Source: Acidobacteriaceae bacterium
GTDB taxonomy: Bacteria; Acidobacteriota; Terriglobia; Terriglobales; Acidobacteriaceae
NCBI GenBank assembly: GCA_025356095.1
Contig: JANXUR010000031.1
Location: forward strand, 1 to 55,032
Length of the DNA: 55,032 nt
Reading direction: 5' to 3'
Shown here: positions 35,980 to 40,736 of the stretch, one piece after another
How the letters are laid out: every line of letters begins with the position of its first letter
Position numbering within the stretch: position 1 is the stretch's first letter
Notes under the pieces: generated by a model
Seen by the model: only the letters and a program-made list of their open reading frames with translations
Databases searched by the model: none
Told to the model about the DNA's origin: nothing
Made by a program: the position numbers and the translations under genes

Positions 35980-36237
35980 CTACCGGGTGAAGGTCAGCTT
36001 CATCGCCACCAGCGCCAGCGCCAACACCAGCGTCACCGCGTTGGCCACCACCACCGGCGTGGCTCCAATCGCAAGTCCATACACCAGCCAGAGCAACACG
36101 CCAAGCGAGAACGTCAACAGCATGGCCAGCGACAGGTCTTGCGCCGTGCGCGACTTCCACGTCTTCCACACCTGTGGCACAAACGAGACCGTGCTGAGCG
36201 TTGCAGCGGCATACCCGATGATGGGAGTAAGAGACAC
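35980..36237 (-). CDS. SemiSWEET-type sugar transporter
   Basis: 85 residues with three transmembrane helices and the PQ-loop motif FVPQVWKTWK in the first, followed by SLAMLLTFSLGVLLWLVYGL. This is the half-size SWEET that dimerises to carry sugars down their gradient. The start is GTG, with TAGAAT 6 nt upstream. Confidence 0.9.
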   Translation of the reverse strand: MSLTPIIGYAAATLSTVSFVPQVWKTWKSRTAQDLSLAMLLTFSLGVLLWLVYGLAIGATPVVVANAVTLVLALALVAMKLTFTR

Positions 36238-36337: not shown

Positions 36338-37477
36338 ATGCAAGTAACGCGTCTGGTGCTCAAGAACTGGCGGAACTTCAAGACAGTGGACGTCGCCCTC
36401 GGCTCGCGCGTCTTTATCGCCGGGCCCAACGCTTCGGGAAAATCCAATCTGCTCGACGTCTTCGCCTTTCTGCGGGATGTTGCCAAGCCCGGAGGTGGAC
36501 TGCAAAAGGCTGTGGAAGAGCGCGGCGGAGTATCCGAACTACGTTGTCTAGCGGCTCGGCGCTACCCGGATATCGAAATCGAGCTGGAACTCGTGGAAAA
36601 CAAGACTTCTTGGACCTATGCTCTAGGCATCAAGCAGGAGGCGAGGGGACATAGGCAGCCGATCGTTGCGTACGAACGGGTTCAGAAGGACGGCACCATA
36701 CTCTTGAAGCGCCCTGACGTCGAGGATAGTTCTGACTCCCTCCGCCTGACTCAGACTCATTTGGAACAGATCATTGCTAACTCCAGCTTTCGTGAGCTCG
36801 CTAAATTCTTCGAGGCAGTCAGCTACCTGCACCTTGTGCCGCAGCTGCTCCGCCATCCTGGTGCCTTCTCCGGTCCCGGCATGCCGGGAGATCCTTTTGG
36901 TCGCGGATTCTTAGACAGGGTATCGCGAACCGTCGGGCGGACACGTAAAGCCCGCTTAGCAAAAATACAAGAGGCGCTTCGCGTTGCCGTCCCTCAATTG
37001 AAAAAATTGGAAGACGTGAAAGACGATACTGGTGTTCCACATCTAGAAGCGGTCTATCAGCACTGGCGTCCGCAGGGGGCGAAGCAGCGCGAAGACCAGT
37101 TCTCCGACGGTACGCTGAGGTTGATAGGGCTCCTCTGGTCAGTCCTCGATGGCGACTCATTGCTGCTCCTCGAGGAACCCGAGCTTTCACTGAACGCCGG
37201 GATTGTTCGCAAGCTGCCCGCTTTGATGTACCGATTACAGCGTCAACGCCAGCGCCAGATTCTTGTTAGTACCCACAGTCCCGATCTTCTCTCGGATCAT
37301 GGTATCGGTGCCGAAGAAGTGCTCTTGCTCACCCCTGGCGATCAAGGAACCACAGTGCAAGTAGCCTCCGCCATAGCGGAAGTTAAGGACCTTCTTGACG
37401 GTGGCCTGAGCGTAGGCGATGCAGTACTGCCTCGCACTGACCCTCAAACCCTGTCCCAGCTTGACCTCTTCCAATGA
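36338..37477 (+). CDS. ABC/SMC-type AAA ATPase of a two-gene defence-like cassette
   Basis: 379 residues of the AAA_21/OLD-like ATPase group: N-terminal LKNWRNFKTVDVALG, Walker A GPNASGKS (29-36), signature-like FSDGTLRLIGLLW (255-267), Walker B LLLLEEPE with Glu279-Glu280, and an H-loop STHSPDLL with His313. The central part is poorly conserved. The stop overlaps the start of the TOPRIM-like gene (ATGA), so the two are made together. Such ATPases energise or gate a nuclease partner. The pair lies between the SemiSWEET gene and gyrA and has more A/T-rich codons than its neighbours. Confidence 0.88.
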   Translation: MQVTRLVLKNWRNFKTVDVALGSRVFIAGPNASGKSNLLDVFAFLRDVAKPGGGLQKAVEERGGVSELRCLAARRYPDIEIELELVENKTSWTYALGIKQEARGHRQPIVAYERVQKDGTILLKRPDVEDSSDSLRLTQTHLEQIIANSSFRELAKFFEAVSYLHLVPQLLRHPGAFSGPGMPGDPFGRGFLDRVSRTVGRTRKARLAKIQEALRVAVPQLKKLEDVKDDTGVPHLEAVYQHWRPQGAKQREDQFSDGTLRLIGLLWSVLDGDSLLLLEEPELSLNAGIVRKLPALMYRLQRQRQRQILVSTHSPDLLSDHGIGAEEVLLLTPGDQGTTVQVASAIAEVKDLLDGGLSVGDAVLPRTDPQTLSQLDLFQ

Positions 37478-38085
37478 GCCAGACCGTTCCACTCAACCTC
37501 GTGGTGGAGGATGAACTGACGGAACAGGTGATACGCAGAGTCCTAGCGGACTTTCCCCATTTCCATACACAGGTAGTGTATAGCCGCGGCGGATTCGGGT
37601 ACATTCGCAAGAATATCGGCGGGTTCAACCTTGCTGCGAAAGCTGTCCCGTACCTCGTCCTGACAGACTTGGATGCAAACCCTTACCCTCCCGCATTGAT
37701 TCAGGAGTGGTTGCCGCAAGGACTGAAGCCAAATTTGATTTTCCGTGTAGCCGTTCGACAAGTCGAAGCCTGGCTATTGGCCGACAAATTCCGGCTGGCT
37801 GACTTTCTACGCGTTGATAATCGGCTAATCCCGAGCACCGTCGAGGACTTGCAGAACCCCAAATTAACTTTGATCAATATCGCGAGAAAATCACGAAACC
37901 GCGACGTGCGCAAAGATATTTGCCCACGCGATCAAAGCACCAGCAAGATCGGCCCCAACTACAACGGACGCTTGTCACACTTCGTTGCGTCTAGTTGGAA
38001 CCCGTCCGACGCAGGCAACCATGCAAATAGCCTAAACGGCCTCCTCAGGCGGTTGCGGGACTTCCAACCATCTTGGACATCTTAG
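37474..38085 (+). CDS. DUF4276-like protein with TOPRIM-type acidic motif
   Basis: 203 residues. The first strand and helix read LNLVVEDELTEQVIRRVL, with Glu12 at the TOPRIM glutamate position, and the DxD motif appears as LVLTDLDANPYP (Asp65, Asp67). FRVAVRQVEAWLLAD is characteristic of DUF4276 proteins. TOPRIM nucleases cut nucleic acid with these residues, as in OLD proteins, where ATPase and TOPRIM are fused. Here they are separate genes with a 4-bp overlap. It ends 8 bp from the gyrA stop, convergently. Confidence 0.85.
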   Translation: MSQTVPLNLVVEDELTEQVIRRVLADFPHFHTQVVYSRGGFGYIRKNIGGFNLAAKAVPYLVLTDLDANPYPPALIQEWLPQGLKPNLIFRVAVRQVEAWLLADKFRLADFLRVDNRLIPSTVEDLQNPKLTLINIARKSRNRDVRKDICPRDQSTSKIGPNYNGRLSHFVASSWNPSDAGNHANSLNGLLRRLRDFQPSWTS

Positions 38086-38093
38086 GCACACCT

Positions 38094-40736
<2,643 letters not shown>

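What the first reader, a model, noticed from the sequence alone, without database searches (positions are those of the whole stretch)
36338..38085. Two-gene ATPase + TOPRIM-like (DUF4276) cassette: candidate defence system
An SMC/AAA_21-type ATPase with all motifs overlaps by 4 bp a small protein with TOPRIM residues Glu12 and Asp65-x-Asp67. This is the split version of OLD-family ATPase-nuclease proteins, many of which are anti-phage. It is inserted between SemiSWEET and gyrA, with codon use unlike its neighbours. The target and trigger are not known.
Basis: partly seen in the sequence, partly recalled or inferred. Interest (0 to 1): 0.66.

Follow-up and report, generated by a model that had tools for sequence, protein, structure and literature searches.

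The report
Split OLD-like ATPase and nuclease pair
Two tightly coupled genes encode an ATPase and a small nuclease-like protein that together look like a bacterial anti-phage defence unit; the family is already catalogued as a candidate (HEC-01), and what is added here is its predicted active site, its place inside restriction-modification gene clusters elsewhere, and its repeated location beside the essential gene gyrA.

Summary
Gene A (36338-37477, 379 aa) is an SMC/Rad50/PtuA-type ABC ATPase with its motifs intact. Gene B (37474-38085, 203 aa) overlaps it by 4 bp. B's predicted structure matches TOPRIM nucleases of OLD proteins and AriB of PARIS best. Its invariant E12, D65, E98 and K130 plausibly correspond to the two-metal site of OLD nucleases. 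A precedes B in 100 of 106 fetched loci, some fetched twice; in the other six B is at or near a contig end. The pair is patchy (15 of 398 family genomes), scattered over many phyla, sometimes broken, and in six loci lies between a methyltransferase and a ResIII-type gene. So it is not housekeeping at this locus, and a split OLD-like defence module is the best reading. It is not a new kind: PADLOC lists both proteins as HEC-01A/B. Less expected is position: in four genera B ends 1-290 bp from the 3' end of gyrA although the other flank differs, and other lineages keep it beside other housekeeping genes. Defence activity, trigger and substrate are untested.

The parts
36338..37477 (+). Gene A: ABC ATPase (HEC-01A; SMC/Rad50/PtuA-like head), 379 aa
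   Evidence: (PADLOC HEC-01A PDLC04180 E 2.5e-161); motif residues in 96 relatives
37474..38085 (+). Gene B: TOPRIM-fold putative two-metal nuclease (HEC-01B, DUF4276-like), 203 aa, overlapping A by 4 bp
   Evidence: HEC-01B PDLC04194 E 5.4e-60; pLDDT 89.9; best structure matches OLD TOPRIM and AriB
36422..36445 (+). Walker A of A (GPNASGKS, G29-S36)
   Evidence: Sequence; G29, N31, G34, K35, S36 each 96/96
37172..37183 (+). Walker B / catalytic glutamate region of A (E279 E280 P281 E282)
   Evidence: Sequence; E279, E280, P281 96/96
37507..37509 (+). B residue E12: TOPRIM glutamate, by alignment offset equivalent to BpOLD E400 / AriB E26
   Evidence: 96/96; aligned ranges; roles from passages of PMC6755086 and PMC12409363
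37666..37674 (+). B residues D65-L66-D67: TOPRIM DxD
   Evidence: D65 96/96, D67 92/96
37765..37767 (+). B residue E98: candidate metal-B ligand (BpOLD E508-like)
   Evidence: 96/96; equivalence inferred from order and secondary structure, not from superposed coordinates
37861..37863 (+). B residue K130: candidate catalytic lysine (BpOLD K562-like)
   Evidence: 96/96; equivalence inferred
38094..40736 (-). gyrA, convergent neighbour whose 3' end lies 8 bp from the end of B; not part of the system but the shared flank in four genera
   Evidence: Pfam DNA_topoisoIV and DNA_gyraseA_C
35980..36237 (-). SemiSWEET-type gene, the flank on the A side, not shared by the other gyrA-side carriers
   Evidence: Pfam PQ-loop and MtN3_slv

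Best explanation
A two-gene, ATPase-gated nuclease module that works like a split OLD protein, as PARIS AriA-AriB does. Shown by sequence or prediction: two coupled genes; an ABC-ATPase fold in A; a TOPRIM fold with an invariant acidic/lysine set in B; patchy, widely scattered distribution; restriction-modification neighbours in several phyla. Inferred: A dimerises on ATP, holds B inactive in a complex, senses a product of phage or plasmid invasion, and lets B act. B then uses two metal ions (E12, D65, D67 for metal A; E98 and perhaps E17 for metal B; K130 as catalytic lysine) to cut nucleic acid, either invading DNA (as OLD/GajA) or host tRNA (as AriB), stopping infection directly or by growth arrest. 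In the window's lineage the cassette sits at the 3' end of gyrA, most simply by one old insertion followed by many losses.
For: PADLOC HEC-01A E 2.5e-161 and HEC-01B E 5.4e-60. B model pLDDT 89.9; VIA-align's first rows are BpOLD TOPRIM 6nk8 Z 8.8 (rmsd 3.9, 164 aligned), AriB 8ux9 Z 8.5 (3.9, 158), 2p62 Z 8.4 (4.0, 166), XcOLD 6njv Z 7.9 (4.3, 161), AriB 8v46 Z 7.4 (4.3, 161); the first row outside OLD/AriB/2p62 is Z 6.6. Foldseek's first row is AriB too (E 0.022). A model pLDDT 88.3: SMC and Rad50 heads and PtuA of Septu at Z about 20-21. Invariant residues in 96 pairs. Pairing 77/80 and 23/26. Patchy: 7/150, 15/398, 29/399 genomes, overlapping sets that each include the window's own genome. 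326 confirmed relatives, 80 kept, from many phyla and archaea. Seven loci with a related methyltransferase gene upstream, six of them with a related ResIII/endonuclease gene downstream. 121 near ORFs hit 120 PADLOC families, 121 distal ORFs 5.
Against: No defence assay for this pair in anything I saw. No relative in phage records, plasmids or, by one motif scan, viral contigs, unlike many mobile defence systems. Several lineages keep the pair beside housekeeping genes (gyrA; pyrG; gatB or leuD), which would also suit a cellular role. D67 is N or E in 4 of 96. Foldseek alone gave no match at E <= 0.001 for B, and Z near 8 is by the tool's own note a level that unrelated folds can reach. No credible sequence match of B to a solved protein. 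The distal control also held two mad3 matches, and of 10 large hand-picked neighbours only 1 matched PADLOC at 1e-50. An archaeal OLD-family ATPase is reported to act in the cell cycle, not defence (PMC12796447, start of abstract in the listing).
Confidence: 0.7

Rival explanations
1. A cellular maintenance module: the ATPase and TOPRIM protein act in chromosome processing, repair or RNA turnover, and some lineages keep them next to housekeeping genes; defence is not their job.
For: Place next to gyrA in four genera, before pyrG in five Planctomycetota loci and near gatB or leuD in four loci of family f8; no phage or plasmid relatives found; an archaeal OLD ATPase with a cell-cycle role (PMC12796447, listing).
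Against: Only 15 of 398 family genomes carry it. Within genus g28, G092 has it at gyrA, G268 has it on an 8.8-kb contig without gyrA, and G027 has gyrA without it and no match at all. Broken copies exist. Methyltransferase-pair-ResIII order in several phyla.
Confidence: 0.17
2. A toxin-antitoxin-like pair in which the ATPase restrains a toxic TOPRIM nuclease and which mainly stabilises its own locus (addiction) rather than fighting phages.
For: Two tightly coupled genes, one nuclease-like, found together; PDB entry 8v45 names AriA an antitoxin; repeated place next to essential genes in some lineages.
Against: L044 and L045 have a stop in A but an open B frame, which a strong addiction pair would make costly; restriction-modification neighbours.
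Confidence: 0.1

Closest known systems
HEC-01 (HEC-01A/HEC-01B), candidate system in PADLOC-DB 2.0.0
   Same: Both proteins match nearly full length (A 1-377 to model 1-380 of 382; B 1-201 to model 1-201 of 204) with E 2.5e-161 and 5.4e-60; two adjacent genes
   Different: Nothing found that sets it apart; the gyrA side is a feature of this lineage
PARIS (AriA ATPase + AriB TOPRIM, proposed class 4 OLD; review PMC10568477, section read)
   Same: ABC ATPase and TOPRIM nuclease on separate genes; AriB is the second-ranked structural match of B (Z 8.5, tied with BpOLD and 2p62); E12 falls on AriB E26 by alignment offset
   Different: A's best models are HEC-01A, with an AriA model at E 5.1e-33; B has no sequence match to AriB and is about 100 residues shorter than the AriB chain (203 against 306)
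OLD nucleases (class 1/2, incl. GajA of Gabija)
   Same: ATPase + TOPRIM; B's top structural matches include OLD C-terminal regions; candidate equivalents of E400, D455, D457, E508, K562
   Different: Two genes instead of one; neighbours in the window are SemiSWEET and gyrA, no helicase gene beside the pair
Septu (PtuA ATPase + PtuB)
   Same: PtuA is among the best structural matches of A (8eea Z 20.8, rmsd 3.7, 295 aligned)
   Different: The partner here is TOPRIM-like; PtuB is an HNH protein (recalled)

Membership tests
HEC-01 (PADLOC candidate) | HEC-01A-like ATPase and HEC-01B-like partner in adjacent genes | tested here: met
   E 2.5e-161 and 5.4e-60; 4-bp overlap. PADLOC's own system rule was not run.
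HEC-01 (PADLOC candidate) | Embedded in or near other defence genes (implied by the name 'Hma-embedded candidate') | tested here: inconclusive
   Not seen in the window (neighbours SemiSWEET, gyrA); seen in relatives: related methyltransferase upstream in 7 loci, ResIII/endonuclease-type gene downstream in 6
OLD family (ATPase-TOPRIM nuclease) | ABC ATPase with Walker A, signature, Walker B, H-loop | tested here: met
OLD family (ATPase-TOPRIM nuclease) | TOPRIM domain with Glu and DxD | tested here: met
   Predicted fold with OLD/AriB as best matches; E12, D65 96/96, D67 92/96. Prediction, not an experimental structure.
OLD family (ATPase-TOPRIM nuclease) | ATPase and TOPRIM in one polypeptide (classes 1-3) | tested here: not met
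   Two ORFs with separate starts
OLD family (ATPase-TOPRIM nuclease) | Metal-dependent nuclease activity | not testable with these tools
   Needs purified protein
PARIS | AriA and AriB homologues by sequence | tested here: not met
   B's 8 PADLOC matches are all HEC-01B; no solved AriB chain found by sequence; A matches an AriA model far below HEC-01A
PARIS | Triggered by Ocr-like anti-restriction proteins, cuts tRNA | not testable with these tools
   Needs experiments
Gabija | GajA fused ATPase-TOPRIM plus GajB helicase | tested here: not met
   Unfused; neighbours are SemiSWEET and gyrA
DUF4276 (PF14103) | Score above Pfam gathering cut-off | tested here: not met
   18.4 bits against 30.2; other B proteins match up to E 6.2e-9

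The most novel reading that the evidence does not exclude
The gyrA-linked branch of HEC-01 is kept beside gyrA because it is functionally tied to DNA gyrase: for example it watches gyrase or DNA supercoiling, which phages can disturb, and releases its TOPRIM nuclease when gyrase is inhibited. Linkage to essential genes (gyrA, pyrG, gatB) would then mark a guard-type defence that ties its presence to what it guards.
Probability: 0.05. Interest if true: 0.75.

Novelty: new member of a known kind. Interest (0 to 1): 0.38.

Why it matters
HEC-01 is a catalogued candidate for which I found no described mechanism in the papers I could search. The work here gives it a concrete, testable active site (E12, D65, D67, E98, K130 in the small partner; K35, E280 in the ATPase), places it structurally with split OLD nucleases such as PARIS, and shows two kinds of genomic home: inside methyltransferase-ResIII clusters, and beside housekeeping genes. 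That makes mutants and hosts easy to choose. If the gyrA linkage proved functional it would suggest what the system senses.

Tried and rejected
Housekeeping gene at a conserved locus: rejected by 15 of 398 family genomes and by the lack of A/B in 28 of the 30 gyrA loci returned from 60 genomes (the two with it are the window and G017).

A third conserved gene: clustering of 705 greedy flank ORFs gave no gene shared by most loci. The largest cluster (12 loci) looks like response regulators by eye, at varying distance and strand. The 588-606 aa ORF after B in five Planctomycetota loci is CTP synthase in the three I scanned (L156, L164, L178).

One clean vertical history at gyrA: the A+B tree puts the window, G017 and G092 in one clade (100/99) and G108 with G413, a genome of another family whose pair has no gyrA in its 19.9-kb stretch (96/79); holding the four gyrA-side rows together is not rejected (p-AU 0.324). 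On the gyrA tree of 32 rows the same four are scattered, at least 3 changes are forced and they are no more clustered than shuffled labels (500 of 500 shuffles as low). One old insertion with losses, repeated insertion, or transfer together with gyrA sequence all remain open. The 41 rows were picked by hand from 96.

Mobile element: the only direct repeats that flank the cassette from outside are short (13 nt at 92%, with one copy inside B), I saw no integrase among the ORFs beside it, no plasmid or phage relatives, and none in viral contigs (one motif, 19 candidate stretches, none confirmed). Promoter/terminator scan gave nothing above shuffles.

DNA or tRNA as substrate could not be decided. 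MADS (a mad3 model matches A at E 1.7e-19): the 8 of 809 papers listed were not about it.

Papers. 'DUF4276': 0 papers. 'HEC-01': 15 papers; I opened one, PMC12724379 (one passage), which lists HEC-01 among systems annotated in Desulfovibrio piger without any mechanism; the other 14 titles look unrelated. 'Hma-embedded': 1 paper, passages read. 'guilt-by-embedding', HEC-05/06 and PADLOC-DB: 33 papers, 30 listed, find-passages sought in four (two of these, PMC9252829 and PMC11834463, hold no 'HEC'). The preprint that defines HEC systems and Krishnan et al. 2020 on ABC ATPases are not held (for the latter); I know of them from reference lists and recall.

Families absent from the structure list, such as RloB/AbiLii, are not excluded; they came to mind from recall.

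Rows dropped: of 107 pair loci (window included) 11 were left out of the 96 used for residue counts and trees because A or B was broken, cut or missing. The 96 still hold near-identical pairs (the same contig from two collections, four Dolichospermum-type copies), so counts overstate independence. 13 loci that I judged duplicates, near-copies or cut were left out of the neighbour counts. PADLOC neighbour scan: 121 of 260 ORFs within 2.5 kb; control 121 of 180 ORFs at least 5.5 kb away in the same loci. ORFs were greedy; only 25 of the 120 families were shown and one protein can match many models, so the number of distinct defence proteins is not known. A follow-up of 10 large hand-picked neighbours at E <= 1e-50 found a match in 1, a methyltransferase.
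Full report
What is there. Two ORFs on the + strand lie between a SemiSWEET-type gene (35980-36237, minus) and gyrA (38094-40736, minus): A 36338-37477 (379 aa) and B 37474-38085 (203 aa), sharing ATGA. Pfam confirms the flanks: DNA_topoisoIV 534.5 bits and DNA_gyraseA_C for gyrA, PQ-loop and MtN3_slv for the other, then TauE. A matches Pfam AAA_21 with 128.6 bits. B matches DUF4276 only below the curated cut-off (18.4 against 30.2 bits); 26 of 27 aligned B proteins match the same family at E <= 0.01, at best E 6.2e-9. The codon use of A and B ranks 4th and 6th least typical among 42 greedy ORFs of the window, and the cassette is 55.4% G+C against 58.4% for the window. The own genome holds one B and one A; its only other match to A is weak (E 2.4e-5, 29% identity, query 252-353).

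What family. PADLOC-DB 2.0.0 has models for both: HEC-01A (E 2.5e-161) and HEC-01B (E 5.4e-60), nearly full length. Further matches of A: another HEC-01A model 2.8e-45, an AriA model 5.1e-33, mad3 1.7e-19, GajA 2.9e-14. So the pair is a catalogued candidate. A 2026 paper on archaeal defence says that several Hma-embedded candidates, including HEC-06, have shown antiviral activity (passage of PMC12988326). A 2024 paper calls HEC-05 and HEC-06 GmrSD-like and explains Hma as helicase, methylase, ATPase (passage of PMC11411939). A 2025 paper lists HEC-01 among the systems annotated in Desulfovibrio piger (passage of PMC12724379). I found no statement on how HEC-01 works; the 14 other papers found with 'HEC-01' have unrelated-looking titles, and the source preprint is not held. 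Split TOPRIM-OLD pairs as a kind are known: a 2026 paper says that they were described by Aravind and colleagues before PARIS and Gabija were named (passage of PMC12839542), and a review counts PARIS as a proposed class 4 of OLD proteins (PMC10568477, section read).

Fold of B. AlphaFold2 on 27 aligned relatives gave pLDDT 89.9, pTM 0.86, with alternating strands and helices (E5-11 H14-24 E30-36 H40-54 E60-66 H72-79 E88-94) followed by a helical part. The second-look aligner puts OLD and PARIS structures first: BpOLD 6nk8 Z 8.8, rmsd 3.9, 164 aligned; AriB 8ux9 Z 8.5, 3.9, 158; 2p62 (Pyrococcus PH0156) Z 8.4, 4.0, 166; XcOLD 6njv, 6njx and 6njw Z 7.9-7.6; AriB 8v46 Z 7.4; the first row outside this set is Z 6.6. 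T. scotoductus OLD 6p74 (6.2) and retron Eco2 protein 9i2f (5.8) are listed too, among unrelated rows. The tool warns that best values of 7 to 8 are common without true kinship; what carries weight is that the top seven rows are nearly all of one kind. Foldseek's first row is AriB, at E 0.022, with nothing at E <= 0.001. Sequence searches of solved structures gave nothing credible for B.

Active site. Among 96 B proteins E12, D65, E98, W100, K130, G160 and W175 never vary; D67 is D in 92, N in 2, E in 2; E17 is E in 84. The structural alignments start with model residue 5 on BpOLD 393 and residue 3 on AriB 17, so without early gaps E12 falls on BpOLD E400 and AriB E26. In BpOLD E400 and D455 are ligands of metal A with D457 near by, E508 coordinates metal B with E404 and T506 holding its waters, and K562 is a catalytic lysine; single metal-ligand mutants had no visible effect there, triple mutants lost activity on linear DNA (passages of PMC6755086). 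The AriB E26A mutant does not cut tRNA, and AriB is described as a two-metal ribonuclease (passages of PMC12409363). By order and secondary structure E98 (helix 97-103) and K130 (helix 129-138) are the likely counterparts of E508 and K562; that is an inference, as coordinates could not be superposed.

Fold of A. pLDDT 88.3; best matches are SMC and Rad50 heads and PtuA of Septu (Z 21.4 to 18.8 in the 50 entries shown; Foldseek best E 1.9e-13, Rad50). Walker A, signature S256/G258 and E279/E280 are 96 of 96; D257 94, H313 95.

Pairing. A stands directly before B in 23 of 26 and 77 of 80; in the other 6, B is at or near a contig end. The 4-bp overlap is the commonest spacing: 10 of 23 and 29 of 75 measured.

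Distribution. 7 of 150 family genomes by single protein; 15 of 398 by profile, 12 strong (E < 1e-50) and 3 weak; 29 of 399 in the class, 18 strong and 11 weak. The sets overlap and include the window's genome. A scan of genome contigs confirmed 326 relatives, of which the best 80 were kept: by record title Acidobacteria, Planctomycetota, Cyanobacteria, Bacteroidetes, Nitrospirae, Deltaproteobacteria, Elusimicrobia, Dehalococcoidia, and archaea such as Methanosarcinales and Methanophagales. None found in viral contigs, phages or plasmids. Two loci of the window's family share contig lengths with contigs titled Acidobacteriaceae and Acidobacteria (L089/L183, L088/L152), so that family is probably Acidobacteriaceae or close to it. 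Broken copies exist: L044 and L045 share one in-frame stop in A; in L089 A is split over two frames and B has a stop.

Defence context. Of 121 near neighbours (of 260 within 2.5 kb), matches at E <= 1e-20 covered 120 PADLOC families, led by type III and II methyltransferases (up to 3 proteins per model), type I specificity subunits (2) and mad5 (2). 121 distal ORFs (of 180) of the same loci covered 5: mad3 (2 proteins) and four of metabolic type (1 each). Clustering of neighbours showed that in L140, L142, L181, L185, L186, L192 and L215 the pair follows a related gene on the same strand, and in the first six a second related gene follows it. Checked upstream members are DNA methylases: L140 and L186 (N6_N4_Mtase 1.5e-31, 1.1e-31), L186 and L192 (PADLOC MTase_III 3.7e-140, 7.8e-157), L142 (MTase_III 4.5e-113). 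Checked downstream members match ResIII (L140, L186, L192; 3.6e-9 to 6.2e-9) or an endonuclease domain (L142, 1e-6). In L192 both gaps are 8 bp; in L181 and L186 the methyltransferase side reads in pieces, and in L185 it is cut by the contig end. By title the carriers are Nitrospinota, KSB1, Planctomycetia, Nitrospirae (two), Bacteroidia and Syntrophaceae. This is the strongest genomic evidence for defence.

Housekeeping neighbours. In the window, G017, G092 and G108 (four genera) B ends 8, 12, 1 and 290 bp from the gyrA end, convergent with it, while the genes on the A side differ in each. These are 4 of the 12 strong carriers of the family; the other 8 show no gyrA in the stretches held, some of them short. 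Among 32 gyrA 3' flanks of up to about 1.5 kb, A and B are the only ORFs (at least 90 aa, greedy) shared by two or more genomes at E <= 1e-5. The 15 strong carriers of the class outside this family are not beside gyrA, though in L101 a gyrA-like C-terminus lies about 9.4 kb away; none of the 80 named contigs shows gyrA in the stretch held, many of them short. In Planctomycetota the pair lies 0-70 bp before a CTP synthase gene in five loci, and in four of them a cytidylyltransferase (kdsB-like) gene lies upstream, directly in three, with another ORF between in L169. In family f8 it lies near gatB (L101, L103, L104) and near leuD- and leuC-like genes (L100, L103, L104). The A+B tree supports the window, G017 and G092 as one clade (100/99) and the four gyrA-side rows plus G413 as a group (94/96); a single clade of the four is not rejected (p-AU 0.324). 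The gyrA tree scatters the same four. I read this as one old insertion next to gyrA with many losses, but repeated insertion or transfer with gyrA sequence is not excluded.

Mechanism. By analogy with PARIS and OLD: the ATPase senses and gates, the TOPRIM nuclease cuts. The ATPase fold, TOPRIM fold and conserved sites rest on sequence and prediction; gating, trigger, substrate and anti-phage effect are inferred. Whether the target is DNA or tRNA cannot be told from sequence.

Verdict. Real, read correctly in essence by the first stage, and a member of a known candidate family rather than a new kind of system. The added points are the TOPRIM/two-metal assignment of the small partner, its home inside methyltransferase-ResIII clusters, and its repeated place next to gyrA.

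Noticed in passing
L044 1-2402 and L045 7962-9890: Two genera (g19, g11) share a nearly identical pair (99.0-99.8% by ORF pieces) with the same in-frame stop in A: recent transfer of an already broken copy, or contamination of one assembly.
   Followed up: partly
L040 9437-10042: The gyrA-side relative G017 has TDLN instead of TDLD in B (D67N) with E12, D65, E98 and K130 intact; three other relatives (L171, L174, L191) also differ at this position.
   Followed up: partly
L156, L164, L169, L178, L212: In Planctomycetota the pair sits on the same strand 0-70 bp before CTP synthase, with a kdsB-like gene upstream in four of the five loci.
   Followed up: partly
L106-L135, L041, L042: gyrA 3' flanks: The stretch downstream of gyrA is almost unconserved in this family: no ORF but A and B recurs among 32 flanks of up to about 1.5 kb.
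   Followed up: yes
PDB 2p62 (PH0156): An uncharacterised Pyrococcus protein is the third-ranked structural match of B (Z 8.4); it may be a TOPRIM relative of unknown role.
   Followed up: no
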